Assembly: GCF_900103885.1 (NCBI RefSeq)
Contig: NZ_FNIM01000001.1
Location: 248,001-312,000, forward strand
Direction: 5' to 3'
Length of the DNA stretch: 64,000 bases
Source of the DNA: Actinomyces ruminicola
Lineage (GTDB): Bacteria > Actinomycetota > Actinomycetes > Actinomycetales > Actinomycetaceae
Position numbers and translations under genes: made by a program. Below, piece by piece: positions 15,217 through 57,280 of the stretch. The notes beneath the pieces were generated by a model, which saw nothing but the letters and a program-made list of their open reading frames with translations, had not been told where the DNA came from and ran no database searches. Within the stretch, counting starts at the first letter, position 1. Each line of letters begins with the position of its first letter.

Positions 15217-15656
15217 TCAGGCCAGCGGCTTGACAAAGTGGAGGAGGCGGTAGGTGCCCGCGAGCGTGCTGCCGTTCTCGCGGTAACCGAGTCGCTTGTA
15301 GAGCCGGATGTTGGCGGCGCTGTGCTCACCGGTGAACAGCCGGATCTCCCGCGCATGCGGGAAGACCGCCTCGGCATGGTGCAGAAGTTGCGTGCCCAGC
15401 CCCTGCCCCTGGCGGTCGGGGGCGACGATCAGCCGTCCGAGTTCAATCACCTCCGCACGGCGGCGCAGGCGCACGGCCCCGATGAGACGACCATGCTCAC
15501 GGATGCCGAGCGCCGTGATGGCGGGGTCGGAGAGCTCCTCCTGAAGCTCCGCCAGGGTCTGCGTGAGGGGCGGGAGGCTGAAGTCCTGATGGGCTGCGGC
15601 TTCGGTGATGTAGGCGGCCCGCTGCAGCGTCAGGATCTCGCCCGCGTCCTGCAGGC
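15217..15656 (-). pseudogene. GNAT N-acetyltransferase, 5' end replaced by a 23-bp-type repeat
   Basis: The frame encodes a good GNAT acetyltransferase from DAGEILTLQRAAYITEA through the acetyl-CoA loop VAPDRQGQGLGTQLL to NIRLYKRLGY and the stop at 15217. It lacks a credible start. The open frame continues upstream into the repeat at 15656-15689 and to a TGA near 15737 with no ATG, GTG or TTG before the first conserved residues. Relatives usually have a start about 10 residues before DAGEI, and here that part is repeat sequence. A GTG at 15474 would skip the N-terminal half of the fold. The gene is therefore probably broken, although a CTG start cannot be excluded. Confidence 0.65.
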
Positions 15657-15689
15657 CGAGGTCGGCAGAAGCTACGTGCCGAGTTCGGT
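15656..15689 (+). repeat. 23-bp-period intergenic repeat, array a (two cores)
   Basis: Two copies of the CCGA-NN-TCGG core are separated by the CAGAAGCTACGTG linker variant. This array abuts and interrupts the 5' end of the GNAT gene. It is the most diverged copy in the window. Confidence 0.75.
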
Positions 15690-15772
15690 CGGTGAGCCCT
15701 CGAGGCCAATACCTGAGGTGGATGGCCTCCCGTCATTTCGTTGGCGGCCGCTGATATGTCCCCGCACCACGA

Positions 15773-15905
15773 ACACGGGTTGTCTCCACGAACACGGGTT
15801 TGCGCCAGGATCACGCGTTTTGGACTTCTACACGTGTAAAGCCCGTGTAGAAGTCCAAAACGCGTGTCTTTGACGACTACTCGTGTCTGAGAGGCGGACT
15901 CGTGT
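15773..15905. repeat. Symmetric non-coding array with 19-bp period and a central perfect inverted repeat
   Basis: Four ACACG-type motifs (15773, 15792, 15811 as TCACG, 15830) and four CGTGT motifs (15844, 15863, 15882, 15901) are each spaced exactly 19 bases within their half. The centre is a perfect 23-bp inverted repeat, 15812-15834 with 15844-15866, around a 9-base loop. Outside the central arms the 11-base intervals differ from one another, while the ACACGnGT part is kept. No convincing ORF covers it. The surrounding 15690-16100 stretch holds nothing else I can identify. Confidence 0.8.
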
Positions 15906-16100
15906 GCCCGGGCAGCGCGGCCGGAGGACCTCAGCCAGGGGCGAGGCCGGCCAGGAGCCCGGCGGTTAGTCCCCTGCGACGACGGTTCGCGCGTCTACCC
16001 CGCGCAGGAAGTGCCGAAGCGTCGGTGGCAGGTGACGAATCGTCGTCGAAACCCACGAACCGTCATTACACGCGGGCCGTCAGGCCGGAGAAACGGCGGG

Positions 16101-16484
16101 TCAGATGATGCCGCGGCCGGGGACGACTTGCTTGCCGAAGGGGAAGCAGGTCACCGGGATCATCTTCAGGTTGGCGACGGCCAGCGGAATGCCGACTATG
16201 GTGATCGCCTGGGCGGCCGCCGTGGTGATGTGGCCGATGGCGAGCCAGAGACCGGCCACGAGGAACCAGATGATGTTGGCCAGACCGCTCATGATCCCGG
16301 CGTTCGGCGTCTCCACCACCTCCCGGCCGAATGGCCACAGCGCGTAGGAGGCAATGCGGAAGGAGGCGATGCCGGCGGGGATCGTCACGATCAGCAGGCA
16401 GGCGATGATGCCGAAGAACATGTACTCCAGCCACAGCCAGAAGCCGCCAAGGACCACCCAGATGACGTTGAGCAGTGTGCGCAT
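16101..16484 (-). CDS. yccF: YccF domain inner-membrane protein
   Basis: The 127-residue protein contains two repeats of the YccF (DUF307) domain: residues 1-60 with NVIWVVLGGFWLWLEY and IPAGIASFRIASYALWPFG, and 65-120 with NIIWFLVAGLWLAIGH and IPLAVANLKMIPVTCFPFG. There are about four membrane segments. The family is of unknown function. The gene lies alone, between the 19-bp array and an ATP-grasp gene on the same strand. Confidence 0.85.
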   Translation of the reverse strand: MRTLLNVIWVVLGGFWLWLEYMFFGIIACLLIVTIPAGIASFRIASYALWPFGREVVETPNAGIMSGLANIIWFLVAGLWLAIGHITTAAAQAITIVGIPLAVANLKMIPVTCFPFGKQVVPGRGII

Positions 16485-16665
16485 GGCCCCATATCTACCC
16501 CGGTCCGGGCAACCGCTGCCTCATCCTCGCGCAGGAGGTTCCCCTGATTCATCCCCGATGGGCGTTGGGGAAGTACTCCGGCAGCTGCCCCGATCACCGC
16601 CTATTCCCGAGACCGGCCGCGAATATCCGCCCGCGGAGCGCCACGGCCGGAGCGCCGGCGCGCTT

Positions 16666-17586
16666 TCACCAGAAGACGCGCTGGGCGATGGCGTCGGCGA
16701 AGTTGTTCAGGGCGGCGGGGGCGGAGCCGAGGTAGAGGCCGGCGTCGATGAGGGAGACCTCCATCAGGTAGAAGCCGCCCTGCCCGTCGCCGACGACGTC
16801 GACCCGGTTGAACAGCAGCTGCATGTCCCGGCCCGAGCGCTCCTTGATGATGGTGTGGATGGCCTTGCGGACCTTCTCGCCCCACAGCCACTCCTGCTCG
16901 CTGGGCTCGCGAGCGGTGACGATCTCCTCGTGCACCTCGTCCACGGAGCGGAAGGAGGGGTGCAGCATGGGGGCCTTCTCCACCGCGTGGGACAGCACGC
17001 CGTTGAAGTACACCAGCGACAGCTCGCCCTTGCGGTCCACCTCCTCCAGGTAGCGCTGCACCATGACGCTGCGGCCGCGGCCGAGGTGGTGCATGGTGTC
17101 GTTGATGGCGTCGGCACGGGACTTGGCGTCGGTGGCGGTGTAGCGGCCGGTGCCGCGCCCGCCGGAGGAGATGGCGGGCTTGACCACGAAGTCGCCGTGG
17201 GCGGGGAAACGCGTGTGGACCTGGTGCTTGGAGTAGCCGGCGGCGGGCTCCAGCCAGGTGGTGGGAATCATGGGGACACCGAGCTCCGCCATGCGCTTGA
17301 GGTAGTGCTTGTCGGAGTTCCAGTCGACGACGTCGGCGTGGTTGATCAGCCGCTTGATCGAGTGGGCCCAGGCGAGGAAGTCCGCATAGTTGCGGTTCTT
17401 GGCATAGTCGCGCACGGAGCGCAGCACCACCACGCCGGCGTCCTCCCAGTTCACGTCCGGGTCATTCCACACCGCGACTCGCGGCTCGATACCGCGCTCG
17501 CGCAGCGCGTCGGGCAGCCCGCGGTCATCGTCGTCGAGGTCCGCGTAGTCGGCTGAGGTCGCAAGGGTCACGATCGGGGCGTTCAC
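16666..17586 (-). CDS. ATP-grasp domain protein (RimK/glutathione synthetase-like)
   Basis: The product is a 306-residue cytoplasmic enzyme if started at the GTG at 17586 (VNAPIVTLATSADYADLDDDD). An ATG at 17688 is in frame but would run past the divergent pip start at 17657, so the GTG is favoured. ATP-grasp signatures are visible: FVVKPAISSGGRGTGRY (nucleotide-binding loop), VQRYLEEVDRKGELSLVYFNG, and the metal-binding end LMEVSLIDAGLYLG. In the usual RimK/GshB pattern that last block reads E-x-N; here it is EVS. Family members ligate an amino acid or peptide to a carboxylate. The substrate here is unknown. Confidence 0.75.
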   Translation of the reverse strand: MNAPIVTLATSADYADLDDDDRGLPDALRERGIEPRVAVWNDPDVNWEDAGVVVLRSVRDYAKNRNYADFLAWAHSIKRLINHADVVDWNSDKHYLKRMAELGVPMIPTTWLEPAAGYSKHQVHTRFPAHGDFVVKPAISSGGRGTGRYTATDAKSRADAINDTMHHLGRGRSVMVQRYLEEVDRKGELSLVYFNGVLSHAVEKAPMLHPSFRSVDEVHEEIVTAREPSEQEWLWGEKVRKAIHTIIKERSGRDMQLLFNRVDVVGDGQGGFYLMEVSLIDAGLYLGSAPAALNNFADAIAQRVFW

Positions 17587-17656
17587 GAGCCATACGCTAC
17601 CGTCCCCAGCGAGCCCGCGCGGCCTGGCCACGACACGGATCGGGCAGGATGAGCCC

Positions 17657-18709
17657 ATGCATGAGACCGCCGCACCAGCCGTCACCACAGCGAATCACTC
17701 CCGCGCCTTCTACCCGCCGCTCGAGCCTTACGAGTCGGGCCTGCTCGAGGTCGGCGATGGGCAGCGCATCTACTGGGAGGCCTGCGGCAACCCGGATGGG
17801 ATTCCCGCCGTATTCGTGCACGGCGGCCCCGGCGGCGGCTGCTCTCCCGAGCACCGGCGCTGCTTCGACCCCGCGCGCTACCGCATCATCCTGTTCGACC
17901 AGCGCGGCTGCGGCCGCTCGCTACCGCATGCGTGGGAGCCGGACGCGGACTTGACCACCAACACCACCTGGCACCTGGTGGCGGACATGGAGCGGCTGCG
18001 CGAGCACTTGGGCGTCGAGGCCTGGTTGGTCTTCGGCGGCTCCTGGGGCTCCACGCTGGCACTGGCCTATGCCGAGCGGCACCCGCGCCGCGTGTCCGCC
18101 CTGGTGCTTCGGGGCATCTTCACACTGCGCAAGCGCGAGCTGGACTGGTTCTACGAGGGCGCCGGCGCGGACATGATCTGGCCCGACGAGTGGGAGCGCT
18201 ACGTGGCGGGAGCCGGCGACGGCGTCGGCCCGGGCGGCTTCATCGGCCGCTACCACGAGCTGCTGAGCAACCCGGACCCGGCGGTGCACGGCCCCGCCGC
18301 TCGCGCCTGGACCACCTGGGAGGCGGCCACCTCCACACTGCTGCGCGACCAGGCGTACATCGACGAGGTACAGGACCCGGCATTCGCCATTTCCTTCGCG
18401 CGGATCGAGAACCACTTCTTCCGCCACCGCGGCTGGATGGACGATGGGCAGCTGATCACCGACGCGCGCGTGCTCGCCGAGCACGACATCCCGGGTGTCA
18501 TCGTCCAGGGCCGCTACGACGTCGTCTGCCCGATGGGCACCGCCTGGGCCCTGCACCGGACCTGGCCGCAGGCGCAGCTGCACATCTCGGCGGCAGCCGG
18601 ACACTCCTTCGCCGAGCCTGAGACGCTCTCCGCGCTGATCACCGCCACCGACCGCTTCGCCGCCGAGCTCTCCCCCACCGGCGCCGCAGGCAGGTACCAC
18701 CAAGACTGA
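17657..18709 (+). CDS. pip: Proline iminopeptidase (prolyl aminopeptidase)
   Basis: The 350-residue alpha/beta hydrolase of peptidase family S33 removes N-terminal proline from peptides. The oxyanion segment HGGPGGG is near residue 55, the nucleophile is S129 in FGGSWGS, and DQRGCGRS near 81-88 is diagnostic of the prolyl aminopeptidase group. The catalytic Asp (GRYDVVCP) and His (AAGHSF) are present near the C-terminus. It is divergent from the ATP-grasp gene with about 70 bases between the starts. It is predicted to be cytoplasmic because no signal peptide is seen. Confidence 0.92.
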   Translation: MHETAAPAVTTANHSRAFYPPLEPYESGLLEVGDGQRIYWEACGNPDGIPAVFVHGGPGGGCSPEHRRCFDPARYRIILFDQRGCGRSLPHAWEPDADLTTNTTWHLVADMERLREHLGVEAWLVFGGSWGSTLALAYAERHPRRVSALVLRGIFTLRKRELDWFYEGAGADMIWPDEWERYVAGAGDGVGPGGFIGRYHELLSNPDPAVHGPAARAWTTWEAATSTLLRDQAYIDEVQDPAFAISFARIENHFFRHRGWMDDGQLITDARVLAEHDIPGVIVQGRYDVVCPMGTAWALHRTWPQAQLHISAAAGHSFAEPETLSALITATDRFAAELSPTGAAGRYHQD

Positions 18710-18747
18710 GACTTCTCGCACACAATGGCGTTTTCAGGCATTCCGAG

Positions 18748-18777
18748 TTGGACGTCGGGCAATCGGGCGCGTAGAGT
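18748..18777 (+). promoter_or_regulatory. Promoter of tRNA-Lys
   Basis: A -35 box TTGGAC (18748-18753) and a -10 box TAGAGT (18772-18777) are spaced 18 bases apart. They end 37 bases before the first base of the tRNA, a normal distance for a processed tRNA leader. Confidence 0.5.
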
Positions 18778-18814
18778 CTTACCCGTCGCCAGGCGCGAGC
18801 GCCTGAACGACCAG

Positions 18815-18891
18815 GCCTCCTTAGCTCAGTTGGTTAGAGCACCTGACTCTTAATCAGGGTGTCCAGGGTTCGAGTCCCTGAGGGGGTACCA
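18815..18891 (+). tRNA. tRNA-Lys (anticodon CTT), CCA encoded
   Basis: The cloverleaf is complete. The acceptor stem pairs GCCTCCT with AGGGGGT. The anticodon arm CCTGA-CTCTTAA-TCAGG gives anticodon CTT, and the T arm is CAGGG-TTCGAGT-CCCTG. The discriminator A at 18888 is followed by genomic CCA (18889-18891). The 347 bases from here to the next small gene hold nothing I can identify. Confidence 0.95.
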
Positions 18892-19238
18892 CGCAGGGCA
18901 GCACACAGCTGCGACGCCGCATCGGATCCGGTGAGCATTGTTCCCGCCACCGCTTACGGTCCGCGCGGTTCCCTCCAACCCGTACCGACTGCGGGAATAC
19001 CACCCGTGTCGGCAGGTGTTGCCCATGCGTAGGTAGACAGGACCTGCCGCCTCGAAATCCTCGAAGCGATCGGGCGCCGGATAGCGCGCTCCCCTGTCCA
19101 CCACGGCAAGACCGTGGGGCGCCGCATGGACGCGCAGCCTCGGTGAGCCGGGACAGACCCACCACACCGGGCCGCAGGAGCCACCTGCACTCCGCCCGGC
19201 ACAGAGGGGCCCACCTGGGCCATGAAGGGAAGGAAGAC

Positions 19239-19406
19239 ATGATGCACCTGATCACCTCCAACAGCGGACGCGACGCCGCCGAGCGAGAGCTGGACGCCGC
19301 CCGCACCGAGTTGGCGTCTCTGGACGCCACCGCCTCGCCCTCGCGCCTGGAGCGCGCGCTCGAGCGCCTGCGGGCGGCGCAGGACGCGCTGGCGCCCGCC
19401 GCCTGA
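19239..19406 (+). CDS. Small hypothetical protein, predicted helical
   Basis: The 55-residue product starts at the first of two adjacent ATGs at 19239, behind a good GGAAGGAAG ribosome-binding site. The sequence is Ala/Glu/Arg/Leu-rich with heptad-like spacing (AERELDAARTELASL, then LERALERLRAAQDAL), so it is probably two short amphipathic helices. No family is recognised. The codon use and the ribosome site favour a real gene, but its small size leaves doubt. The following 345 bases up to bcp hold no feature I can support. Confidence 0.5.
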   Translation: MMHLITSNSGRDAAERELDAARTELASLDATASPSRLERALERLRAAQDALAPAA

Positions 19407-19751
19407 CGCCTCCACGCCCCACTGCGCGAGACCGGCACGAATAACACACCCGGACCGGCATCATGACGCGCCCAAGCCGGCGCTCGTCACGTACCGGGAC
19501 CGGTCGAAATGACCGGCGGCGTTCGACTCGGCTCATTGCCTCGGACGCCGGCGGCTTACTCCTGGGCCGTCCCCGCGCACCGCGGTGGGCGGCCCTCGTA
19601 ACTCCCACGCCGTCCCGCCCGCATTGCGCACGCCCGCGACTTGAACGCGCAAGCACTTTCCGCAGCAACACCGGAGGCACGCCCATCCGCGCGACCGACT
19701 AGGTTGGTTGCCGACTCAGCAGTTACGTTCCGCAGCCCCCAGGAGGACACC

Positions 19752-20231
19752 GTGCCCCAGCTCGCCGTCGGCGACGCCGCCCCCGACTTCATCCTGCCCG
19801 ACCAGTCCGGCACCCCGGTGTCCCTGGCCGAGCTGCGCACAGGCGCCGAGCGCGGCGTGGTCGTCTACTTCTACCCGCGCGCGGCCACACCCGGCTGCAC
19901 CAAGGAGGCTTGTGACTTCCGCGACTCGCTGGCGGGATGGCGGCGCGCGGGATACGCCGTCGTCGGCCTTTCCCCGGACACCCCGCAGGCGCTGACGCGC
20001 TTCGCCACCAAGCAGGCCCTGCCCTTCCCGCTGCTGTCGGACCCCGACCACGCCGTGCTGGAGGCCTGGGGCGCGTGGGGCGAGAAGAAGAACTACGGCC
20101 GCACCGTCACCGGGGTAATCCGCTCCACGGTGGTGGTCGACCCCGACGGCAACGTCGTCCTGGCGCGCTACAACGTGCGCGCCACCGGTCACGTGGACCG
20201 TCTGCGCCGCGAGCTCGGCATCGACGACTGA
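19752..20231 (+). CDS. bcp: Thioredoxin-dependent peroxiredoxin, BCP/PrxQ type
   Basis: The 159-residue peroxidase reduces H2O2 and organic hydroperoxides with thioredoxin. The GTG at 19752 is preceded by AGGAGG and gives the standard start VPQLAVGDAAPDF; the longer in-frame ORF upstream lacks family similarity. The peroxidatic cysteine is C49 in ATPGCTKEACDFRD, with the resolving cysteine five residues later at C54, the classic alpha-helical 2-Cys BCP arrangement. It is a single gene, convergent with the Gfo/Idh gene, and both a hairpin and a 23-bp repeat array lie between them. Confidence 0.93.
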   Translation: MPQLAVGDAAPDFILPDQSGTPVSLAELRTGAERGVVVYFYPRAATPGCTKEACDFRDSLAGWRRAGYAVVGLSPDTPQALTRFATKQALPFPLLSDPDHAVLEAWGAWGEKKNYGRTVTGVIRSTVVVDPDGNVVLARYNVRATGHVDRLRRELGIDD

Positions 20232-20270: not shown

Positions 20271-20305
20271 CCGAGATCGGCAGAAGTTACGTACCCGGAT
20301 CGGTT
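20271..20305 (+). repeat. 23-bp-period intergenic repeat, array b (two cores)
   Basis: One full unit (CCGAGATCGG followed by CAGAAGTTACGTA) and a second core variant (CCGGATCGG) are present. The array lies between the convergent 3' ends of bcp and the Gfo/Idh gene. Confidence 0.8.
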
Positions 20306-22743: not shown

Positions 22744-23447
22744 TGTCGGCATCTGCGCCCGAGCCGCAAGACGCTGCGACGCCGTCGTCGGCAGGCGTGC
22801 CGGCAGGGGCCCGGCTGGTGCTGGCCAGCCACAACCCCGGCAAGCTGGCCGAGCTGCGCGCGATCCTGGCTCCGCTTGTGGACGGGCTGGAGGCCGAGCA
22901 GATCATTTCCTCGGCCGGACTCGGGGCCCCCGAGCCGGTGGAGGACGGGCTGAGCTTCGCCGCCAACGCCGAGCTCAAGGCACGCGCCCTGGCGGAGGCC
23001 ACCGGCCTGCCCGCGGTGGCGGACGACTCGGGGTTGTGCGTTGATGTGCTGGGCGGGGCACCGGGAATCTTCTCGGCCCGCTGGTCCGGCCGCCACGGCG
23101 ACGACCTCGCCAACCTGCACCTGCTGCTGGATCAGCTGGCCGACGTCGCCGACCCCCACCGCACAGCGCGCTTCACCTGCGCGGCGGTGCTGGTGGTGCC
23201 CGGTCGGGATGGCGAGCCGGCGACGGTCACAACGGTGGAGCGCTCCATGGTCGGGCGGCTGCTGCGCGAGCCGGTCGGTGCGGGCGGCTTCGGCTACGAC
23301 CCGATCTTCGTGCCCGCCCAGGAGGACGCCCCAGGCGGGTCCGGGCGGACGACGGCGCAGCTGAGCGCGGCGGAGAAGAACGCCATCTCCCACCGCGGCC
23401 AGGCCATGCGCGCCCTGGCCCCCACCCTGCGCGACTTGCTCTCCTAG
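22743..23447 (+). CDS. rdgB: Non-canonical purine NTP pyrophosphatase (RdgB/HAM1)
   Basis: The 234-residue enzyme hydrolyses ITP, dITP and XTP to monophosphates and so keeps hypoxanthine and xanthine out of nucleic acids. The N-terminal substrate loop is LASHNPGKLAEL near residues 24-35, the catalytic block is ADDSGLCVDVLGGAPGIFSAR near 95-115, and FGYDPIFVP lies near 180. The first 20 residues are an extra Ala/Pro-rich leader. It is translated directly behind rph. Soon after its stop comes repeat array c. Confidence 0.95.
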   Translation: MSASAPEPQDAATPSSAGVPAGARLVLASHNPGKLAELRAILAPLVDGLEAEQIISSAGLGAPEPVEDGLSFAANAELKARALAEATGLPAVADDSGLCVDVLGGAPGIFSARWSGRHGDDLANLHLLLDQLADVADPHRTARFTCAAVLVVPGRDGEPATVTTVERSMVGRLLREPVGAGGFGYDPIFVPAQEDAPGGSGRTTAQLSAAEKNAISHRGQAMRALAPTLRDLLS

Positions 23448-23480: not shown

Positions 23481-23536
23481 CCGAGATCGGTAGAAGTTGC
23501 GTGCCGAAGTCGGTAGAAGTTACGTGCCCAGATCGG
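23481..23536 (+). repeat. 23-bp-period intergenic repeat, array c (three cores)
   Basis: Three cores (CCGAGATCGG, CCGAAGTCGG, CCAGATCGG) are linked by TAGAAGTTGCGTG and TAGAAGTTACGTG. The array lies between the end of rdgB and the operator region of the next operon. It is in inverted orientation relative to array d at 24412. Confidence 0.9.
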
Positions 23537-23587
23537 CACAAGCGGCGGGCTGGAAAGATCCGGCACGCATCGACTCGCTCCGCAACT

Positions 23588-24411: not shown

Positions 24412-24473
24412 ACTTCTACCGATCTCGGCACGTAAGTTCTACCGATCTCGGCACGTAAGTTCTACCGATCTCG
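24412..24473 (-). repeat. 23-bp-period intergenic repeat, array d (three cores)
   Basis: Read on the minus strand, three GATCGGTAGAAGT-type units follow one another at a 23-base interval. The array separates two convergent genes. The stop codon of the minus-strand membrane protein (24462-24464) is the TAG inside its first unit. Confidence 0.9.
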
Positions 24474-25055
24474 CTGCTGGGCGTCCAGCCGACGCTGGAC
24501 GCCCTTGGGCACCAGCGAGTCATGCGCCTTGACGTAGCCGTACAGGCTGCGCCATCCGCCCATGAAGACCGCCAGGAACGCGGCCAGCATGACCGCGAAC
24601 GACGCCATCCCGCCCGCACCGGCGATCGCACCGGCCGCCGCGCCCCAGGCGCACAGACCGGTCCACACCGCCCAGGTCGCCGTGATCACGCAGCCGCCGT
24701 CCGGCCAGCCCACCTCCAGGTGATCGCCGGGACGGCGCACCAGCCATGCCACCGCCCAGGCGACGACGACGGCGATCCCGCCGCAGACCAGCAGACCCGG
24801 CACCTGCGCCAGGTCATGGGCCGACGCGGCGGCGAAGCAGGCCACGAGCGCAACCGAAATCGTGTCGGCCAGCAGTACCAGCCACCAACGGGTGCGGCGC
24901 CCGCGCGTCCAGGGCCGGTCCGGCCCGTCGGGCACCGGTGGCGTGTAACTGATCGGTGCGGGCTCGGTTCCGTCTTTGTGCCCGCCGTTGTACTGGCGGT
25001 CGACCGCGTCACGCGATCCGGCCTCCGCCCGGTCCTGCGAGTACTGGTCCTGCAC
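24462..25055 (-). CDS. Hypothetical membrane protein whose stop lies in a repeat
   Basis: The 197-residue protein has a hydrophilic N-terminus (about 55 residues, with RGRRTRWW before the first membrane segment) and four hydrophobic segments (about 57-75, 85-105, 120-145 and 150-168). The C-terminus is basic. No family is recognised. The last codons (QQRDR-stop) come from repeat array d, whose GATCGGTAG supplies the TAG. This suggests the original C-terminus was altered when the repeat arrived. Its ATG is 3 bases beyond the stop of the metallo-hydrolase gene upstream, so it probably belongs to the murI operon. Confidence 0.7.
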   Translation of the reverse strand: MQDQYSQDRAEAGSRDAVDRQYNGGHKDGTEPAPISYTPPVPDGPDRPWTRGRRTRWWLVLLADTISVALVACFAAASAHDLAQVPGLLVCGGIAVVVAWAVAWLVRRPGDHLEVGWPDGGCVITATWAVWTGLCAWGAAAGAIAGAGGMASFAVMLAAFLAVFMGGWRSLYGYVKAHDSLVPKGVQRRLDAQQRDR

Positions 25056-35452: not shown

Positions 35453-35511
35453 CAACCGATCTCGGCACGTAACTTCAACCGATCTCGGCACGTAACTTCT
35501 ACCGATCTCGG
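35453..35511 (-). repeat. 23-bp-period intergenic repeat, array e (three cores)
   Basis: On the minus strand there are three cores with TAGAAGTTACGTG or TTGAAGTTACGTG linkers at 23-base spacing. The array lies beyond the HU terminators and before the ABC ATPase gene. Confidence 0.9.
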
Positions 35512-35607: not shown

Positions 35608-35892
35608 TCACTTGCCGGAAGCGGCCTTCTTCAGGGCGGAGCCGGCGGTCAGCTTGACACCGTAGCCGGCGGGGATCTGAATCTCCTCACCGGTGCGGGG
35701 GTTGCGGCCGGTACGCGCGGCGCGCTCGACGCGCTCAACACCCATCAGGCCCGTGACCTTGACGGCCTCTCCCTTGGCGACGTTCTCAACGAGAACGTCC
35801 TGGAAGGCGCCGAGGAAGGCGTCGGCGTCGGTCTTGGTCAGGCCGGCCTTCTCAGCGATGGCGGCAATGAGCTCGGTGCGGTTGATGGACAT
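35608..35892 (-). CDS. hup: HU-family nucleoid DNA-binding protein
   Basis: The 94-residue protein is the normal HU length, without the long Lys/Ala tail found in mycobacteria. Recognisable are the N-terminal helices MSINRTELIAAIAEKAGLTKTDA (first 12 shown in family form), the GLMGVERVERAARTGRNPRTGEEIQIPA arm (with the conserved RNPRTG and the intercalating IPA), and the closing PKTA-like GSALKKAAS. The start at 35892 follows GAGAGGTAG. The protein compacts and bends DNA in the nucleoid. It is monocistronic with strong terminators. Confidence 0.95.
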   Translation of the reverse strand: MSINRTELIAAIAEKAGLTKTDADAFLGAFQDVLVENVAKGEAVKVTGLMGVERVERAARTGRNPRTGEEIQIPAGYGVKLTAGSALKKAASGK

Positions 35893-44655: not shown

Positions 44656-45381
44656 GTGGTGGATATGAAGCGAGGCGCCTACGCCTCAACGAGTGGAACG
44701 ACGACGCAGGCCACCAGTGCGATGAACTCCATCAAGGACTACATCCTCCAGTCCCACCTCCAGCCCGGCGATCCGCTGCCGACCGAGTCGCAGCTGTGCG
44801 AGACCCTGGGCATGTCCCGCTCCTCCGTGCGGGAGGCCGTACGCACCCTGGCGGCGCTGGATATCGTCGAGGTGCGCCACGGACACGGCATGTTCGTGGG
44901 GCAGGTTTCCATGCGGCCCATGGTCGAGTCCCTCGTCTTCCGGGGTCTGCTCAAGCCCGGGGACGACTACCGCAGCCTGCGCGAGGTGGTTCAGGTTCGC
45001 CGCACCCTGGACACCGCCCTGGCGCAGGCGGTGGTGGAGGCGTGGCAGGGGCGTGAGGACCCTGCGATCGACGACGTCGTGGATCAGATGGAGGCGTTGG
45101 CCGAGCGGGGAGAGACCTTCACCGACCAGGACCGCAGCTTTCACCGGATGCTGCTGGCGCCGGTCCCCAACCAGCTCTTCGCCCACCTGATGGAGGCCTT
45201 CTGGGCGGTCCACACGCTGACCGTCCCCATGCTCGACGCCCCCCGCCCGGAGGACATCGTCAATACCGCCAAGGCCCACCGGGCCATGCTCCAGGCGGCC
45301 CGCTCCGGCGACGTGGAGGCCTACCGCGAGGCGGTGGTGGCCCACTACGAGCCACTGGCAAACGCCCTCACCCGCTCCTGA
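44656..45381 (+). CDS. nanR: GntR/FadR-type regulator of the nan cluster
   Basis: The 241-residue regulator has an N-terminal winged helix (AMNSIKDYILQSHLQPGDPLPTESQLCETLGMSRSSVREAVRTL, positions about 18-60, with the SRSSVREA recognition helix). It continues with an all-helical FCD-type effector domain (about 90-230, with metal-type residues in RTLDTAL, DRSFHRML and KAHRAMLQAARSGD). The GTG at 44656 is behind GAAGAGGAAC. Divergence from the nan operon and the dyads in between suggest that it represses the operon until sialic acid or ManNAc-6-P is present. The symbol nanR is by role, inferred from context. Confidence 0.82.
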   Translation: MVDMKRGAYASTSGTTTQATSAMNSIKDYILQSHLQPGDPLPTESQLCETLGMSRSSVREAVRTLAALDIVEVRHGHGMFVGQVSMRPMVESLVFRGLLKPGDDYRSLREVVQVRRTLDTALAQAVVEAWQGREDPAIDDVVDQMEALAERGETFTDQDRSFHRMLLAPVPNQLFAHLMEAFWAVHTLTVPMLDAPRPEDIVNTAKAHRAMLQAARSGDVEAYREAVVAHYEPLANALTRS

Positions 45382-45414: not shown

Positions 45415-45457
45415 CCGAGATCGGTAGCAGTTACGTGCCCAGATCGGTAGAAGTCAC
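45415..45457 (+). repeat. 23-bp-period intergenic repeat, array f (two cores)
   Basis: Two cores (CCGAGATCGG, CCAGATCGG) are linked by TAGCAGTTACGTG. The array lies between the convergent ends of nanR and the esterase gene. The esterase stop TGA at 45454-45456 lies in the TAGAAGTCACG part. Confidence 0.85.
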
Positions 45458-46575
45458 GGCTGCGGCCGCCCGAGCTCATCATCGAGCTCGCCACCGCAGT
45501 CATTCGCGGCGATCATCGGGAAGGTCCCCTCCCCCACCACCCGCGCCAGGTTGATGCGCGGGTCCTCGGGCCGAAGCAGCCGGGTGAGCCAGCTCAGCCG
45601 CGCCGCCTCCAGGCCGTCGCGCAGCCAGGTGGCGCTGACGTGCTCCATGGCGTGGGTGGCGCCCGGCCACACGTGCAGCTCGCAGTCCCCGCCGTCGCGC
45701 CACAGGGCCGCGGCGAAGGCGACCACCTCGTCCCGGAAGGTCTCGGCCCCGGCGACGGACAGGAAGATCGGGGGTAGCCCGGCCAGCGCGCCCGGCTGGT
45801 CGACGGCGCGGCCGGCCGCCTCATGCGCACTCACCGCCGCTCCACCCCGCCGGCCGGGCAGGATCTGCTCCCAGGCCCAGTCGTTCCAGTGCGCCGGCCA
45901 CAGCCCGTCGTCGGGGTACTGCCGGGCCGACGGCGGCTGCACCGCGCCGTCGGGGCCGACCAGCCCGGTGCGGTCATCCAGCATCGGGTAGTCGAGCAGG
46001 TAGCCCAGTGCGCGGGGCCCGCCGCGGTCCCGGGCGGCCAGGGCCAGGCAGGCGGCCAGTCCCCCGCCGCCGCTGGGACCGACGACGACGATGCGCCCCG
46101 GATCGGCCCCGTAGTCCGCGGCGTGATCGGCGGCCCAGGTCAGCGCGGCCAGACAGTCCTCCCCCGCGGCCGGGGCGGGGTGCTCCGGCGCCAGGCGGTA
46201 CTCCGGGGCGACGACGACGCCGCCGAAGCGCCGCGCCCAGGCGGTGGGGGCGGCCAGGTCGTCGAAGCGGCAGCCCATGACCCGCCCGCCGCCGTGGATC
46301 GACAGCAGCAGCGGGGCGCCCGGCTGCACCGCGCCGTCGGGCGGGAGCACCACGGTCAGCGGCATGGTTGTGCCGTCGTCGCGGAGCAGGGCCTCCTCTC
46401 GCAGGCGCGCGTCCGGGCAGGCGGCCAGGTAGGCGTCGCGCCGGGCGGCAACGGGAATGCGGCGGGAGGCGAGCGTGGCGTCGTTCAGGGGCGGGATACC
46501 ACCCGCCTCCTCCAGGCGCTGCAGCACCAGTGCGGTGGCGGGCTCGTAGGGCGGCCGGGGAGACGACGTCGGCAT
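45454..46575 (-). CDS. Alpha/beta hydrolase, acetyl esterase/lipase type
   Basis: The 373-residue enzyme is of the hormone-sensitive-lipase-like family. The oxyanion motif is SIHGGGRVMG near residue 90, the nucleophile elbow is VGPSGGGG near 165 (GxSxG, with Pro-Ser-Gly rather than Asp-Ser-Ala), and YRLAPEHPAPAA near 125 is diagnostic. The catalytic Asp is expected near residues 280-285 (AETFRDE) and the His is in GATHAMEHV near 308. It is predicted to be cytoplasmic. The final residues (GRPQP) run into repeat array f, which provides the stop. The substrate is unknown; deacetylation of acetylated sialic acid is a tempting but untested idea given the neighbouring nan genes. Confidence 0.85.
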   Translation of the reverse strand: MPTSSPRPPYEPATALVLQRLEEAGGIPPLNDATLASRRIPVAARRDAYLAACPDARLREEALLRDDGTTMPLTVVLPPDGAVQPGAPLLLSIHGGGRVMGCRFDDLAAPTAWARRFGGVVVAPEYRLAPEHPAPAAGEDCLAALTWAADHAADYGADPGRIVVVGPSGGGGLAACLALAARDRGGPRALGYLLDYPMLDDRTGLVGPDGAVQPPSARQYPDDGLWPAHWNDWAWEQILPGRRGGAAVSAHEAAGRAVDQPGALAGLPPIFLSVAGAETFRDEVVAFAAALWRDGGDCELHVWPGATHAMEHVSATWLRDGLEAARLSWLTRLLRPEDPRINLARVVGEGTFPMIAANDCGGELDDELGRPQP

Positions 46576-49920: not shown

Positions 49921-50033
49921 GGCTGGGCCTTCCTGTTCAGGCGCGCCCGTACCGTGTTGCCCATTCTCATGTACCCACCATGTACCCACAGGGGGGCTCA
50001 CGGGAGGGTTTTCGTTGGTATTTCAACGGGTAG

Positions 50034-50401
50034 TGGAGATGCGGGGAATCGAACCCCGGTCCGACGGTGGTGCAACAGGACTTCTCCGGGTGCAGTTCGC
50101 TGCTGTTTTTCTCGGCCCCGGCGTCTCACGCGAACAAGGACGCCGACGGGCTCAGCCACCTGAAAGTCCCGAGACCCCCGGTGGCGTGGGGCCTCAGCAG
50201 TGGCTTCCTAGATGACGCCAGGAACCGGGGCGGAAGCTCCCCCGGGCTGACGGACTTCGAGGCTCGCCTCAGGCGGCGAGGGCGAAGTCGGTGCGAGTGT
50301 TATCGGCACCTATTGGTTCGCACAGAGCGTTGACGAGATGACTGTGCATCCTCGACCCGCTTCTCCTGAATCCACGACCGTCGTCGAAACCGATCATCCC
50401 C
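50034..50401 (-). ncRNA. ssrA: Transfer-messenger RNA
   Basis: On the minus strand the RNA begins GGGGATGATCGGTTTCGACG and ends with a T-arm (CCGGGGTTCGATTCCCC split) and the acceptor strand CATCTCC plus A. The acceptor pairs GGGGATG with CATCTCC (one G-U). CCA is not encoded. The tag reading frame runs from the resume codon GCC to TGA and encodes ADNTRTDFALAA, close to actinobacterial tags ending FALAA. With SmpB, encoded at 51681, it rescues stalled ribosomes and tags the product for Clp proteolysis. The 3' end faces the phage remnant, matching a common integration site. Confidence 0.93.
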
Positions 50402-52330: not shown

Positions 52331-52368
52331 CGGTGCCGTCGCCTCCGAGGCCGGAGGCGACGGCACCG
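52331..52368 (-). terminator. Strong hairpin terminator after the M23 peptidase gene
   Basis: A perfect 16-bp inverted repeat (52331-52346 with 52353-52368) with a 6-base loop lies 23 bases beyond the peptidase stop. It ends the ftsEX-peptidase transcript and leaves smpB to its own promoter. Confidence 0.75.
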
Positions 52369-52390
52369 ACGCACGTAGCCGGCTCTCCCC

Positions 52391-53725
52391 TCAGAACCCC
52401 GGCAGGGTCATGGGGTCGATCTCGGTACCGTTGATGATTACCTCGAAGTGGACGTGAGGTCCTGTAGCGCCTCCGGTCATGCCCGTGAGCCCGATGGTCT
52501 GTCCCCTGGTTACGGTGGCGCCGTTGGGCACCGAGATCGCGGACAGGTGGCAGTAAGCCAGCACAACCGACTGGCCGTTAATGACACCGCCGTTGATGAA
52601 GACGCCGTTACCGCACGAGCTGTTGATGTTGTGGGTGACCGTGCCGGCTACGCCCGCGTACTGGGGCGTGCCGGAGGAGGCCACCAGGTCCACCCCGGCG
52701 TGCAGCCGACTCTGCCCCGTGATGGGGTGGATGCGGTAGCCGAAGGGAGAGGCGACGATTAGCGGTCCGGCGATGGGATGGCCGATCGCCCCGCTTCCCA
52801 ATGAGGAGGACGCGCTCGCGCCCGATGACGATCCGGTGTATCCAGCGGCCGCCTGGTTCGCGGCGTCGAGCTCGGCGATCTTTGCGGCCGCGGCCTCCTC
52901 ATCGGCGGCGGCCTGCGCCTGCTGCGCCTCCAGCCCGGACTTCTGCTTCTCCAGGTTGGCGGCCGCGGTCTCCTTCTCGCTCTTGAGCGTGGCGACCTCG
53001 TCCCGCTTGGTCTGGGCGGCGTCCCTGGCGGTCTGCGCGGCCTCCTTGGCGGCGTCGGCCTCTGCCTTGAGCGTCCCCACACGCTCGGTGGTGGCATCCT
53101 GGCGGGCCTCCCGGTTGGCCGCCTGGGCGCGCTCCTCCTCGGCGGCGGACAGGACGGACTCCTGCACGCCGGTGGCGATCTCCATGGTGGAGGCCCGGTC
53201 GGTGAGCTGCTCCACGGAGTCGGAGGAGAGCACGTAAGTCCAGGAGGTCACCGCGCTGTCGCCCTGGTAGGTGGCCACTACCAGGTCTGCCACGGAACTG
53301 GTGTTCTCCTCCACGGTGGTCTGTGTCTGCTCCGACTCCTCCTGCAGGGCGGCCAGCTCGGACTCCGCGACGGCCAGGCGGTTAGCGGCGGTCTGCTGCT
53401 CGCGGTCCTTCTGCGCCAGGACGGTCTCGGCGTCGTCGAGTTCGGACTGCGCGGTGGCCAGGGACGCCTCCGCGTTCTGCAGCTCGATGTAGGCCTGGCC
53501 CAGCTCCGCGGACACGCCCTCCAGCGAGGCGGCCAGCTCGGCCTGCTTGCGCTGGGCGGCGGCCTGGTCGTCGACGGCGTCCTGGCGCTCATCGGCCTGC
53601 GCCCCGGCGCACAGGGGGGCGGCAACCAGCACGAGCGTGGCGGCGCCGACGAGGGCACGGCGGGCCCGCCGCCTGAGGCGACGGCTGCCGGGGCGGGGGT
53701 GGAGCGGGGAGCGCACTGAGAGCAT
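52391..53725 (-). CDS. Secreted M23 (LytM) peptidase with coiled coil, FtsEX partner
   Basis: The 444-residue protein starts at the ATG at 53725. It has a signal peptide (basic RRLRRRARR, hydrophobic LVGAATLVLVAAPLC, cleavage near AGAQA). A long Ala/Glu/Gln coiled coil (about residues 35-290) follows, then a short Ser/Gly linker and a LytM peptidase domain (about 320-444). Zinc ligands are intact: LHAGVDL (H-x3-D) and GPHVHFEV (H-x-H). This is the EnvC/RipC layout, in which the coiled coil is driven by FtsEX to open the cell wall at division. Its gene follows ftsX by 5 bases. Confidence 0.9.
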   Translation of the reverse strand: MLSVRSPLHPRPGSRRLRRRARRALVGAATLVLVAAPLCAGAQADERQDAVDDQAAAQRKQAELAASLEGVSAELGQAYIELQNAEASLATAQSELDDAETVLAQKDREQQTAANRLAVAESELAALQEESEQTQTTVEENTSSVADLVVATYQGDSAVTSWTYVLSSDSVEQLTDRASTMEIATGVQESVLSAAEEERAQAANREARQDATTERVGTLKAEADAAKEAAQTARDAAQTKRDEVATLKSEKETAAANLEKQKSGLEAQQAQAAADEEAAAAKIAELDAANQAAAGYTGSSSGASASSSLGSGAIGHPIAGPLIVASPFGYRIHPITGQSRLHAGVDLVASSGTPQYAGVAGTVTHNINSSCGNGVFINGGVINGQSVVLAYCHLSAISVPNGATVTRGQTIGLTGMTGGATGPHVHFEVIINGTEIDPMTLPGF

Positions 53726-53730
53726 GGGAA

Positions 53731-54645
53731 TCAGACCCTTGTGTACTTCGACAGTGAGAAGGCGGAGGAGGCCACCGCCAGTACGACGGCGGACAGCAGT
53801 AGCCAGGGGGCCAGGCGCAGCACGTCGCCGGTGCCGATGAAGGCGGTGAACTGCACGGACGTGGCCAGCCAGTCGACGACGACGTAGCGCACCATCGCCC
53901 ACAGCCCGGCCACGGCCCCGATAGCACCGATCAGGGCGGCGATGGCCCCCTCTAGCATGAAGGGCAGTTGGATGAACAGGTTCGAGGCGCCGACCAGCCG
54001 CATAATGCCGGTCTCCTTGGAGCGGCTCATGGCGGACAGCCGGATGGTGGTGGAGATCAGCAGCACCGCCGTCAACGCCAGGATGGCGGCCAGTCCCCCA
54101 GTGATCCAGGTGACCCGGTTCATCACCACGAACAGGGGCTCGAGCGTGTCCGCCTGGTCGATGACGCGCTCGACGCCAGCGCGGCCGGTGAACTGCTCGG
54201 CGACCACCTGGTACTTCTCGGGGTCGACGAGCTTGATGCGGAAGGACACCGGCATCATGTCCTCGGTGGCGTTGCGGCCGATGCGCGACTCGCCGTAGGC
54301 GTCCATGAAGCGCTTGTAGGCGTCGGCCTTGGACTCGATGCTGTAGTTCTCGATATAGGGGGCCAGGGTGTCGGAGTTGACCAGGTCCTCCACGGCGTCG
54401 ATCTGCTCCTGCGTGGCCTCGCCATCGACGCAGGCCGCCGCGGTGGACGACGCCGGGCACATGTAGACGCTGACCTCAACCTTGTCGTACCAGTCGCCCT
54501 TCATCACGGAGATCTGGTTCTGCAGCAGTACGGAGGCGCCGACGAACAGCAGTGACACGAAGGACACCAGGATCACCGAGACGGTCATGACCAGGTTGCG
54601 GCTGAGCCCCTTGAAGGTCTCGGAGACGATGAAACGGAATCGCAT
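53731..54645 (-). CDS. ftsX: Cell division protein FtsX
   Basis: The 304-residue membrane subunit of FtsEX has the usual topology: an N-terminal cytoplasmic segment, a first membrane helix (LVMTVSVILVSFVSLLFVGA, near residues 18-37), a large extracytoplasmic domain with two Cys (C53 and C62 in YMCPASSTAAACVDGE) and three more helices at the C-terminus (about 180-200, 228-248 and 270-290). It passes the ATP-driven signal from FtsE to the wall hydrolase encoded next. The gene lies 60 bases after ftsE and 5 bases before the peptidase gene. Confidence 0.93.
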   Translation of the reverse strand: MRFRFIVSETFKGLSRNLVMTVSVILVSFVSLLFVGASVLLQNQISVMKGDWYDKVEVSVYMCPASSTAAACVDGEATQEQIDAVEDLVNSDTLAPYIENYSIESKADAYKRFMDAYGESRIGRNATEDMMPVSFRIKLVDPEKYQVVAEQFTGRAGVERVIDQADTLEPLFVVMNRVTWITGGLAAILALTAVLLISTTIRLSAMSRSKETGIMRLVGASNLFIQLPFMLEGAIAALIGAIGAVAGLWAMVRYVVVDWLATSVQFTAFIGTGDVLRLAPWLLLSAVVLAVASSAFSLSKYTRV

Positions 54646-54705
54646 GCGGTTACCTCAATACCTCTTTCACGGGAGTCGCGGCCCCGATTGCCGACGGGGC
54701 CGGGC

Positions 54706-55395
54706 TCAACGGTCCGATCCGTATACGCCGCGCGCCTGGTCGCGCACGACCTCGCCGGCCTTGAGCTCGATGACGCGTTTGCGCATCTGATCGACGATCT
54801 CGTCGTCGTGGGTGGCCATGACCACGGTGGTGCCCTGCCGGTTGATGCGGTCGAGCAGACGCATGATGCCCACGGAGGTCGATGGGTCGAGGTTGCCGGT
54901 GGGCTCGTCCGCCATGAGCAGCTTGGGACGGTTGACCATGGCGCGGGCGATGGCCACGCGCTGCTGCTCACCGCCGGACAGCTCGTGCGGCAGGCGCTTC
55001 TCCTTGCCGGACAGTCCCACCAGCTCGAGTGCCTCGGGCACGGCCGAGAGGATGTAGTGCCGGGGCTTGCCGATCACCTGGGAGGCTATGGCCACGTTCT
55101 CGAAGACGTTCTTGTTCTCCAGCAGGCGGAAGTCCTGGAAGACGAAGCCCATCTCCTGGCGCAGCTTGGGAACCTTCCAGCTGGAGATCTGCGACAGATC
55201 GCGTCCAAGCACGTGGATGCGCCCGGAGGTGGGGCGCTCCTCGCGCAGGGTCAGCCGCAGGAAGGTGGATTTGCCGGAGCCGGACGCGCCCACCAGGAAC
55301 ACGAACTCCTCGCGCTCGATCTCTATGGAGACGTCGTCGAGCGCGGGCCGGGCTCCGCGCTTGTACACCTTGGAGACGTTGTCGAATCGAATCAT
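54706..55395 (-). CDS. ftsE: Cell division ATP-binding protein FtsE
   Basis: The 229-residue ATPase starts at the ATG at 55395 ([17 protein letters not shown]), exactly the normal FtsE length; the longer open frame upstream is not coding. Walker A is [10 protein letters not shown] near residue 36, the signature is [17 protein letters not shown] near 137, and Walker B is [13 protein letters not shown] near 159. It forms the membrane complex with FtsX and controls septal wall hydrolysis. In many actinobacteria the order is prfB-ftsE-ftsX-smpB; prfB is not upstream here. Confidence 0.95.
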
Positions 55396-55546
55396 GGGGT
55401 AGCTGCTTCCTGCTCGTGGCCGACGCAGGCACGCCGGGGCTACAAGCCACGGTAACCAGTTGGGCTTGGAATCCCGGCGGTGACACGCCAGAACACGCCG
55501 AGTCGAGGTGTGGTGCCGCCCGCTTCGGCGTTCTACCGTTCCGGAC

Positions 55547-56197
55547 ATGGCTGAAACGCATCCCGACGACGGCTCCCCCACGGCTCCCCCGCCCAGTGCC
55601 GGCGCCGCGGTCCCGGACGGATCGGCCCGCGCCGACCGTGACGGCGCCACCCGCGAGGCCGCCAACCATGCGGCCCAGACTGCGCCGGCCAGCCGCGAAG
55701 ACGCCCGTCAAGATGCGGAGGCCGCCATCGATGTGGGCTCCTGGAACCGTTTCATCCCGTCTCTGACCCGGTGGCTGCAAACGGGCCGGGAGGATGTTGT
55801 GCCCGCCGTGCGCCTCGCCGCCGCCGTACCGATCGTCACCACCGAGACGGCCCCGCGGGAGCGCTCGGGACCCGGCCCCCTGCGCCTGCTGCGCCGTCGC
55901 CACCGCCTCCCGCCCTCACCACTGCCGCCGATGCTTGCGGCGCAGTCCCGCTTAGACGGCGTGAAGCTGACGGCACCGCTGCGCGACGACGCCGGCCGAG
56001 CCCTGCTCGGCGAGGATGCCCTGGCAGCACTGGCCGCCCTGGGCTGGCGACGCCGTGAGGGCGCCATGATGCAGAGTGCGCTGGGGGCGGAGTCGGCGGC
56101 CCGGTTGGCGGCGCGGGTGCTGATCGAGGTGTTCGACGTCGCCCATCCGGCGGACCTGGCCATCGCCGTCGAGCATGCGGTGCCGCCCGCAGCCTGA
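55547..56197 (+). CDS. Hypothetical soluble protein, divergent from ftsE
   Basis: The 216-residue product ([16 protein letters not shown]) has a disordered Pro/Ala/Asp/Arg-rich first 65 residues. A folded-looking part follows, with [21 protein letters not shown] near 66-87 and C-terminal helices [21 protein letters not shown] and [21 protein letters not shown] (about 155-205). No membrane segment or known domain is seen. A GTG at 55508 in the same frame is possible but lies close to the ftsE promoter region. The stop is 14 bases before repeat array g. Confidence 0.65.
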
Positions 56198-56210
56198 ACC
56201 GCCCCCTTCA

Positions 56211-56290
56211 CCGAGATCGGTAGAAGTTACGTACCGAGATCGGTAGAACTCACGCGCCCAAATCGGTAGAAGTCACGCGCCCAGATCGGT
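56211..56290 (+). repeat. 23-bp-period intergenic repeat, array g (four cores)
   Basis: Four cores at exact 23-base spacing are linked by TAGAAGTTACGTA, TAGAACTCACGCG and TAGAAGTCACGCG. It is the longest array in the window. It is in inverted orientation to array h, and the two bracket the SSB paralogue gene. Confidence 0.92.
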
Positions 56291-56479
56291 TGCTATGGCT
56301 CATCGCCTGCCGTCTGCGCCATCAAGTACCTGCGGGCGGGCGAAGGCACCGGCGTCCACAGGCGGCGTTCGTGCAGGGGTGCTCATCCGGCATCAACAGG
56401 TCGGTGGCGGCTCGGAGCGCGGTTGCGGGACCGTTGAAGCAGCCGGCACGGTGCCGGCGCTCAACGCAAGGAGCATCTC

Positions 56480-57151
56480 ATGAGCCGTCAACTCGATCTC
56501 GTCGTCCAGGGCGTCCTCGGCACGAACCCCGCCGTCACCCGCACTACCGGTGGACGCGCCTACTGCTACTTCCGTCTGGCCACGTCCCCGTCATTCCGCA
56601 CCGCCGAGGGCTGGCGGGACGGGCAGACCATTTGGTTCACCGCCAAGGCGTGGGGAGCGCTAGCGGAGAACCTCGGCCGCTCCCTGCACAAGGGCGACCC
56701 GGTGGTGCTGGTTGGGCGCTTCACCCAAGAGAGTTGGTCGAAGGGCTCCGACGAGTACCTCACCAACGTCCTGAACGTGTCTTGCGGCGGACATGACCTC
56801 ACTCGCGGAGAGTCGCGCTTCATGCGCATCATCCACAAGGCCGACCCCGCCGATAACGGTGATGCCGGCGCGCCGGACGCGGCGGCAACCACCTCCTCCG
56901 GCTCGGCGCAGACCGCCGGATCCGCGCCTTCCCCGGACGAACCCAGGCAGTCGAGTTCCGATCAGTGTCTGCCGCCCGCCACAGCGCCCCTCGACACCAC
57001 GCCGGCCGCTGAGCCCTTCGCCGACCACTCGACGTCGCCACAGCATCAGGAGGAACTGAGAGATCCCCGTGGTGATGAGCCGGCCTCCGAGCCGCAGGCC
57101 GTTGACGGTCAGTTCGACACGGACTACCTGCTTGCCGACGAGGAGGACTGA
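56480..57151 (+). CDS. Single-stranded DNA-binding protein paralogue
   Basis: The 223-residue protein has an OB-fold SSB domain (about residues 4-110), with LVVQGVLGTNPAVTRTTGGRAYCYFRLA, TIWFTAKAWGALAENLGRSLHKGDPVVLVGRF and LTNVLNVSCGGHDL. The linker (about 115-205) is Pro/Ser/Gln/Asp-rich. The C-terminus is acidic (LLADEED) but lacks the final Pro-Phe of the DDIPF tip that recruits DNA-repair partners in main SSBs. It is not beside rpsF-rpsR, where the main actinobacterial ssb lies. It is therefore a second SSB, of unknown special role. The ATG follows AGGAG. Confidence 0.85.
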   Translation: MSRQLDLVVQGVLGTNPAVTRTTGGRAYCYFRLATSPSFRTAEGWRDGQTIWFTAKAWGALAENLGRSLHKGDPVVLVGRFTQESWSKGSDEYLTNVLNVSCGGHDLTRGESRFMRIIHKADPADNGDAGAPDAAATTSSGSAQTAGSAPSPDEPRQSSSDQCLPPATAPLDTTPAAEPFADHSTSPQHQEELRDPRGDEPASEPQAVDGQFDTDYLLADEED

Positions 57152-57221
57152 GCCGGGCCGCGTCACACGCCATTGCCGCAGCCGGGCACAAGCCGGCCAG
57201 GACACTTGGAGCCGTGCCATA

Positions 57222-57280
57222 TCTACCGATTTCGGCACGTTACTTCTACCGATCTCGCCGGTGATTTCTACCGATCTCGG
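57222..57280 (-). repeat. 23-bp-period intergenic repeat, array h (three cores)
   Basis: On the minus strand three cores (with CCGATCTCGG and a CCGATTTCGG variant on the plus strand) are spaced at about 23-24 bases. The linker between the first two on the plus strand is shortened and altered. It lies between the convergent ends of the SSB gene and the GTPase gene. Confidence 0.85.

What the first reader, a model, noticed from the sequence alone, without database searches (positions are those of the whole stretch)
15656..57280. Family of short tandem arrays with a 23-bp period at eight intergenic sites
Eight places (15656, 20271, 23481, 24412, 35453, 45415, 56211, 57222) carry 2-4 copies of a 23-bp unit with a CCGA-NN-TCGG core followed by a TAGAAGTTACGTG-like stretch. 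There are about 22 cores in 64 kb, and nearly all lie just beyond gene 3' ends. The unit has no ORF, no transposase nearby, and a regular tandem structure, unlike ordinary IS remnants. It could be a REP-like mobile repeat, a transcript end or processing signal, or a protein-binding array. I know of no named element with this sequence.
Basis: seen in the sequence. Interest (0 to 1): 0.72.

Follow-up and report, generated by a model that had tools for sequence, protein, structure and literature searches.

The report
Genus-wide arrays after gene ends
Short 22-23 letter DNA repeats, strung two to eight in a row and mostly just after genes, form a large family found in some branches of the bacterial genus Actinomyces, and how they spread and what they do is unknown.

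Summary
The arrays are real. All eight sites carry the unit, and the genome has 241 matches (reversed-pattern control 0), so copies reach well beyond the window. The unit is one version of a wider family: a core CGAGRTCGG repeated every 22-23 bp, usually after a C-rich leader. At least five tandem matches occur in 15 of 49 Actinomyces genomes, in three clades with different linkers; 164 genomes of 35 other genera of the family have 0-1.

Of 94 arrays with both neighbours called, 70 lie on the same strand as the gene before them, a median 17-18 nt past its stop. In 12 of these 70 the array's own TAG is the stop codon. Sites are often shared between species, unit number varies, and linkers tend to be genome-typical. 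In the window an inverted array pair brackets an ssb segment that is flipped relative to 12 of 12 relatives fetched.

Best reading: a REP-like, non-autonomous repeat at gene 3' ends, probably transcribed, with a short hairpin or protein-bound core. No RAYT-type transposase was found in 49 of 49 genomes, so the copying mechanism is unknown. The idea that arrays replace hairpin terminators was tested and not supported.

The parts
15656..15689 (+). degenerate array, two cores (CCGAGGTCGGC..., CCGAGTTCGGT); its flank lacks the usual C-rich leader
20271..20304 (+). array, one unit plus a damaged core, 39 nt after an AhpC/TSA-family gene (19752-20231 +); bare 18-bp gap between the two stop codons at this site in five related carriers
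23481..23537 (+). array, three cores, 33 nt after a Ham1-family gene (22818-23447 +)
24418..24474 (-). array, three cores; its TAG is the stop codon of the weakly scored minus-strand ORF 24462-25055
35455..35511 (-). array, three cores, 96 nt after an HU-type gene (35608-35892 -)
45415..45448 (+). array, two cores, 33 nt after a GntR/FCD-family gene (44722-45381 +), convergent with a hydrolase gene (45454-46527 -)
56211..56290 (+). array, four cores, 13 nt after gene 55547-56197 + (weakly scored; a gene is called at the same place in relatives)
57225..57280 (-). array, three cores (one 22-bp spacing), 60 nt after gene 57341-58831 -
56291..57224 (.). ssb segment between the inverted array pair; ssb (56480-57151 +) is on the opposite strand in 12 of 12 fetched relatives. 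11 of the 12 have no tandem core at this locus; G170 has one, on the other strand, between ssb and the next gene

Best explanation
The arrays are members of a genus-level family of dispersed, non-autonomous, REP-like repeats.

Shown: usually a C-rich leader, then 2-8 tandem units of 22-23 bp with core CGAGRTCGG. 70 of 94 arrays lie on the coding strand of the gene before them, and 59 of these 70 start within 50 nt of its stop codon. Many sites are shared between species, unit number varies, and linkers are clade-typical and partly genome-typical.

Inferred: new sites arise by copying of existing units, with a preference for C-rich tracts near gene ends. Tandem growth is by slippage or unequal recombination. 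The array is transcribed as part of the 3' UTR, where the core folds as a short stem-loop or is bound by a protein, giving a mild 3'-end effect. The copying enzyme is unknown. Inverted pairs can serve as endpoints of local inversions, seen once, at ssb.
For: Copy number: 241 matches in the 3.10 Mb genome, reversed control 0.

Family: at least 5 tandem matches in 15 of 49 Actinomyces genomes, 0-1 in the other 34 and in all 164 genomes of 35 other genera, reversed control 0-1; 0-2 in 196 of 196 other genomes sampled from the class, control 0-2.

Location: of 94 arrays, 31 convergent, 39 co-directional sense, 17 co-directional antisense, 7 divergent, against 0.176/0.311/0.311/0.202 for random placement; chi-square p 3e-6; 39:17 gives p 0.0046. 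With well-scored genes only: 34, 34, 17, 9.

The leader is as strong in antisense and divergent arrays, so it looks intrinsic.

Sites are shared while unit number changes. Genome-typical linkers: positions 14-16 read AAG in 19 of 26 G000 linkers but in 4 of 96 units listed for G169.

Site 20271: identical 18-bp gaps in five carriers favour separate gains in G000 and G170.

Outer core pair: G.T or A-T in 161 of 176 distinct rumen-type cores, C-G in 23 of 24 G124-type cores. Inversion at ssb: 12 of 12 relatives.
Against: No TnpA-REP (Y1_Tnp) gene in 49 of 49 genomes; reverse transcriptases do not track the arrays. No insertion was caught with exact ends: at 20271 the extra stretch in G000 is 112 bp, more than the array, and on the tree two losses are as short a history as two gains. 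In 146 distinct rumen-type units no pair stands clearly above shuffles, and in clade B the outer core pair fits in only 20 of 27 cores. 24 of 94 arrays are antisense or divergent. Array ends have about as many strong hairpins outside the array as control ends, 7 of 29 against 37 of 118. The location p-values treat orthologous arrays of different species as independent, so they are too small.
Confidence: 0.55

Rival explanations
1. The arrays are mainly functional transcript-end elements: the C-rich leader loads Rho (or a similar factor) and the repeated units pause polymerase or protect the 3' end; selection, not self-copying, keeps them near stop codons.
For: Same strand as the gene before in 70 of 94, median 17-18 nt past the stop; divergent sites depleted, 7 of 94 against 20% expected. 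C-rich, G-poor leader: C 0.56 and G 0.16 at -10 to -1 of the 70 sense arrays, against C 0.37 and G 0.36 in the 40 nt after stops without arrays in C10. At one of the two array loci sampled in G164, a plus and a minus array meet head to head and form a palindrome.
Against: Leader equally C-rich in the 24 antisense and divergent arrays. Hairpin test with matched lengths shows no replacement of terminators, p 0.51. At the 20271 site five carriers have only 18 bp between the convergent stop codons and no array. Arrays follow only a small part of gene ends: 30 arrays with flanks called among 615 called genes in C10.
Confidence: 0.3
2. The arrays are tandem operators for a sequence-specific DNA-binding protein (nucleoid or boundary protein), the core being its dyad site.
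For: Near-invariant CGAGRTCGG in three clades while linkers diverge, though the search pattern fixes this core; unpaired positions such as 17, 19 and 20 are almost invariant in the 211 units of the rumen-type set, where the seed pattern also fixes them in part.
Against: Strand and distance bias relative to stop codons is not expected of plain operators; 22-23 bp is not a whole number of helical turns; the right arm TCGG hardly varies while the left shows C to T and G to C changes, unlike a symmetric operator. No candidate protein was found or systematically sought.
Confidence: 0.25
3. Ordinary inherited minisatellites: ancestral intergenic repeats that only expand and shrink by slippage, with no dispersal.
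For: Same sites in close species with differing unit number; arrays follow clades.
Against: Unlinked sites in one genome share linker types that differ from those of another genome at the same site. Identical 18-bp gaps at 20271 in five carriers suggest the empty state is old. At ssb, G000 has two arrays where 11 of 12 relatives have no tandem core.
Confidence: 0.12

Closest known systems
REP/BIME/REPIN elements (GTAG and CGTC super-families)
   Same: 20-40 bp units, high copy, intergenic, mostly between co-directional or convergent genes and downstream of coding regions (PMC3733652, abstract and passages seen); genome-typical variants; short palindromic core.
   Different: No RAYT/TnpA-REP gene in 49 of 49 genomes; head-to-tail at 22-23 bp, not alternating orientation; stem of only 4-5 bp; C-rich leader.
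MIRU elements of mycobacteria (recalled, not from a call)
   Same: Intergenic tandem repeats with variable copy number in a high-GC actinobacterium, oriented with neighbouring genes.
   Different: MIRUs are larger units at fewer loci (recalled); no sequence comparison was made here.
Intrinsic or Rho-dependent terminators
   Same: Often just after stop codons, sense strand, C-rich leader.
   Different: No U-tract in the consensus; moderate folds; do not replace hairpins in the test; restricted to some clades.
CRISPR arrays (recalled)
   Same: Regular short repeats with a palindromic part.
   Different: No unique spacers: the linker is itself repeated; many sites per genome.

Membership tests
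REP/REPIN | High-copy short intergenic repeat with a palindromic core | tested here: met
REP/REPIN | Linked to a RAYT (Y1_Tnp) transposase in the genome or its kin | tested here: not met
   0 of 49 genus genomes; the same search rings in 5 of 14 control genomes
REP/REPIN | GTAG or CGTC tetranucleotide beside the hairpin | tested here: inconclusive
   rumen-type units read CGGTAG in most copies (position 12 A 0.72); units listed for other clades mostly lack it
REP/REPIN | Units in alternating orientation (BIME/REPIN pairs) | tested here: not met
   units of one array are head-to-tail, 211 of 224 spacings exactly 23 bp; one head-to-head pair of arrays seen in G164
Intrinsic terminator | Stable GC hairpin followed by a T run | tested here: not met
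   C10 arrays fold at -19.2 against -15.3 kcal/mol per 60 nt shuffled; no T run in the consensus
Rho-dependent terminator | C-rich, G-poor leader | tested here: met
   (composition only)
Rho-dependent terminator | Rho-dependent 3' ends in vivo | not testable with these tools
   no RNA data
IS terminal sequence or MITE | Terminal inverted repeats and target duplication | tested here: inconclusive
   left and right edge profiles are not inverted copies; no clean insertion seen
CRISPR | Non-repetitive spacers between repeats | tested here: not met

The most novel reading that the evidence does not exclude
A self-propagating class of gene-end repeat, specific to Actinomyces, that spreads without any known REP transposase. 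It keeps a fixed core, period and C-rich leader while each lineage rewrites the linker across its copies, so an unknown copying or gene-conversion machine rewrites 3' UTRs genome-wide and lets inverted pairs flip genes such as ssb.
Probability: 0.25. Interest if true: 0.75.

Novelty: new variant of a known kind. Interest (0 to 1): 0.5.

Why it matters
REP-like repeats are usually tied to RAYT transposases (my own knowledge, in line). A family of this size with no such gene found in 49 genomes raises the question of how short repeats can multiply and stay alike within a genome. Their place after stop codons also makes them natural targets for 3'-end mapping in a genus where, to my knowledge, termination is little studied.

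Tried and rejected
Arrays replace hairpin terminators: a first comparison looked positive, was weak after masking arrays, and vanished with more genomes and matched length. Rejected.

Paired arrays as cassette ends: the middle segments are unrelated to each other. The ndk segment is not inverted in the relatives aligned, nor is the 23481/24412 segment in G176 or G169. Of the three array-bounded segments compared with relatives, only ssb is flipped.

Strand bias from truncated hit lists: dropped, because the lists run forward-first by chunk.

RNA covariation inside the rumen clade: none clear; the best pair, 8% paired, was reached by 10 of 300 shuffles. An earlier count mixed both strands and is discarded.

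Mobilisers: Y1_Tnp none. Reverse transcriptase matches in 20 of 49 genomes but in only 6 of the 15 array-bearing ones, one of the 6 below cut-off.

First thought that all 12 relatives lack arrays at ssb: one search looked for type-A units only. A recheck with the general core found one array in G170, so it is 11 of 12. First thought that 20271 is a loss in five species: withdrawn.

Rows dropped before counts: 10 of 104 arrays without a well-scored gene on both sides; 18 of 126 duplicates. Limits: gene calls come from my own simple codon-score caller. The random-placement expectation is from G000 contig C10 alone, although the arrays come from five genomes. Orthologous arrays of different species are counted separately. 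Loci of named species were chosen by the type-A pattern.
Full report
OBSERVATION. Tandem Repeats Finder and pattern search confirm the arrays at the eight sites. Strict cores number 20, 15 of them in the arrays. Copies are genome-wide: 241 matches to CCGANNTCGGTAGAAGTTACGTG at up to 3 mismatches in 3.10 Mb, reversed control 0. In contig C10 (785 kb) the looser core CCGA[AG]N[TC]CGG[TC] occurs 83 times in 141 kb of noncoding sequence and 97 times in the remaining 644 kb.

ANATOMY. Of 126 arrays found in fetched sequence, 108 are distinct. They hold 1-8 cores, mostly 2-3, and 211 of 224 spacings are 23 bp, 10 are 22 bp. Unit consensus: CCGAGRTCGGTNGAWSTTACGTR. The left edge is a C-rich, G-poor stretch ending in C then A or G; the right edge is a last core followed by nGAWRTGRCGG. 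A second unit type with a 22-bp period (linker like AGATATAACCG) and a third, CCGAGACCGGCACNNGTNACGTG, occur in the same group of species, and types differ at the same site between species.

WHERE THEY SIT. For 94 of 104 arrays from five genomes (G000, A. succiniciruminis, A. glycerinitolerans, A. ruminis, G169) well-scored genes lie on both sides. Using the nearest called gene of any score: 31 convergent, 39 co-directional sense, 17 co-directional antisense, 7 divergent; with well-scored genes only, 34, 34, 17 and 9. Random placement in C10 intergenic space would give fractions 0.176, 0.311, 0.311, 0.202; chi-square p 3e-6; sense against antisense p 0.0046. Orthologous arrays are counted separately, so these p-values are too small. 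The 70 sense arrays start a median 17-18 nt after the stop, 59 of 70 within 50 nt, and a median 74 (convergent) or 127 nt (co-directional) from the next gene. In 12 of 70 the array's own TAG is the stop codon. In samples of three further species 10 of 12 arrays are sense: G164 3 of 3 (at two loci), G158 3 of 3, G124 4 of 6; the G160 sample had no array and the G038 sample one antisense and two inside called genes. The C-rich leader is just as strong in antisense and divergent arrays, so it seems to belong to the element, not to the gene end.

SPREAD. The G000-type unit is confined to a group of rumen and related Actinomyces: 8 of 49 genus genomes, one of them a single hit; named members are A. 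succiniciruminis, A. glycerinitolerans and A. ruminis. A sample of G124, which lacks that unit, turned up its own 23-bp arrays with a different linker. Searching the core alone in tandem gave at least 5 matches in 15 of 49 genus genomes (5 in G083, up to 571 in G164), 0-1 in the other 34, and 0-1 in 164 genomes of 35 other genera of the family, reversed control 0-1; in 196 other genomes sampled from the class, 0-2, control 0-2. On a three-protein tree of 33 of the 49 genus members the 15 fall in three clades with no array-free member among those sampled: the rumen group with G124 and G180 (support 0.994), G083/G160/G158/G164 (1.000), and G038/G145 (1.000); deep branches are weak. Linkers differ between the clades. 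The three-clade pattern may mean old origin with losses, or separate gains; the data do not decide.

DYNAMICS. Close species share sites but differ in unit number, for example 4 against 5 cores (L036/L059) and 1 against 2 full units (L061/L057). At the ndk site six of six carriers compared have array-like units, with differing linkers, such as five AGATCTTACGTA units in G169. Positions 14-16 of the unit read AAG in 19 of 26 G000 linkers, two antisense rows left out, but in 4 of 96 units listed for G169. At 23481 the number of full units runs from none to three among carriers. At 20271, G000 and G170 have arrays of different types while five other carriers have exactly 18 bp between the two stop codons. 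On the tree two gains and two losses are equally short; the identical gap favours gains, but the extra stretch in G000, 112 bp, is more than the array itself, so the ends of the event are not resolved. At ssb, G000 has an inverted array pair and the segment between is flipped against 12 of 12 fetched relatives. 11 of the 12 have no tandem core at this locus; G170 has one array on the other strand between ssb and the next gene. That is one event, and whether the arrays caused the inversion is not shown. Two other array-bounded segments, ndk and 23481/24412 in G176 and G169, are not flipped.

STRUCTURE. In 146 distinct rumen-type units no position pair stands clearly above shuffles. Across clades the outermost core pair changes on both sides: G.T or A-T in 161 of 176 rumen-type cores, C-G in 23 of 24 G124-type cores, G.T or A-T in 20 of 27 clade-B cores, C-G in 5 of 9 clade-C cores; pooled pairing 0.903 against 0.715 shuffled, reached by 0 of 300 shuffles. 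This rests on very few evolutionary events and suits a dyad in DNA as well as a hairpin in RNA. Arrays fold only moderately.

FUNCTION TESTS. Arrays do not stand in for hairpin terminators once lengths are matched: strong hairpins outside the array at 7 of 29 array ends against 37 of 118 controls, p 0.51. No Y1_Tnp in 49 of 49 genomes, and reverse transcriptases do not track arrays. So the mover is unknown.

LITERATURE. REPs lie mainly between co-directional and convergent genes and downstream of coding regions (PMC3733652, abstract and passages). Searches for Actinomyces with repeat terms and for the named species, seen as listings only, and the two REP papers searched for the word Actinomyces gave no description of these arrays.

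VERDICT. A real, large, genus-level repeat family; a variant of the REP kind by what it looks like, but not a member by test, since RAYT was not found and orientation is direct. Its 3'-end bias is firm; its function and copying mechanism are open.

Noticed in passing
G000 contig C10: 109545-109690, 680375-680545, 697455-697620, 710290-710480, 778585-778740 (outside the window): A second intergenic array family: 19-20 bp period, core TTGGACC or a near variant, as head-to-head pairs 18-21 bp apart at these five loci, predicted to fold at -69 to -92 kcal/mol. Similar 20-bp TTTGGAC arrays occur in G172 and G174.
   Followed up: partly
15767-15820: A 19-bp tandem repeat CCACGAACACGGGTTTGCG, followed by a long near-perfect hairpin at about 15819-15860; CACGGGTT recurs 17 times in C10, 14 of them noncoding.
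   Followed up: partly
56480-57151: The ssb gene is on the opposite strand to that in 12 of 12 relatives fetched.
   Followed up: yes
G164 stretches L198-L207: At one of two array loci sampled a plus and a minus array meet head to head about 7 nt apart, making a palindrome; only 3 arrays in 200 kb although the genome has 571 matches, so density is uneven.
   Followed up: no
50033-50401: tmRNA gene on the minus strand, tag peptide ADNTRTDFALAA.
   Followed up: no
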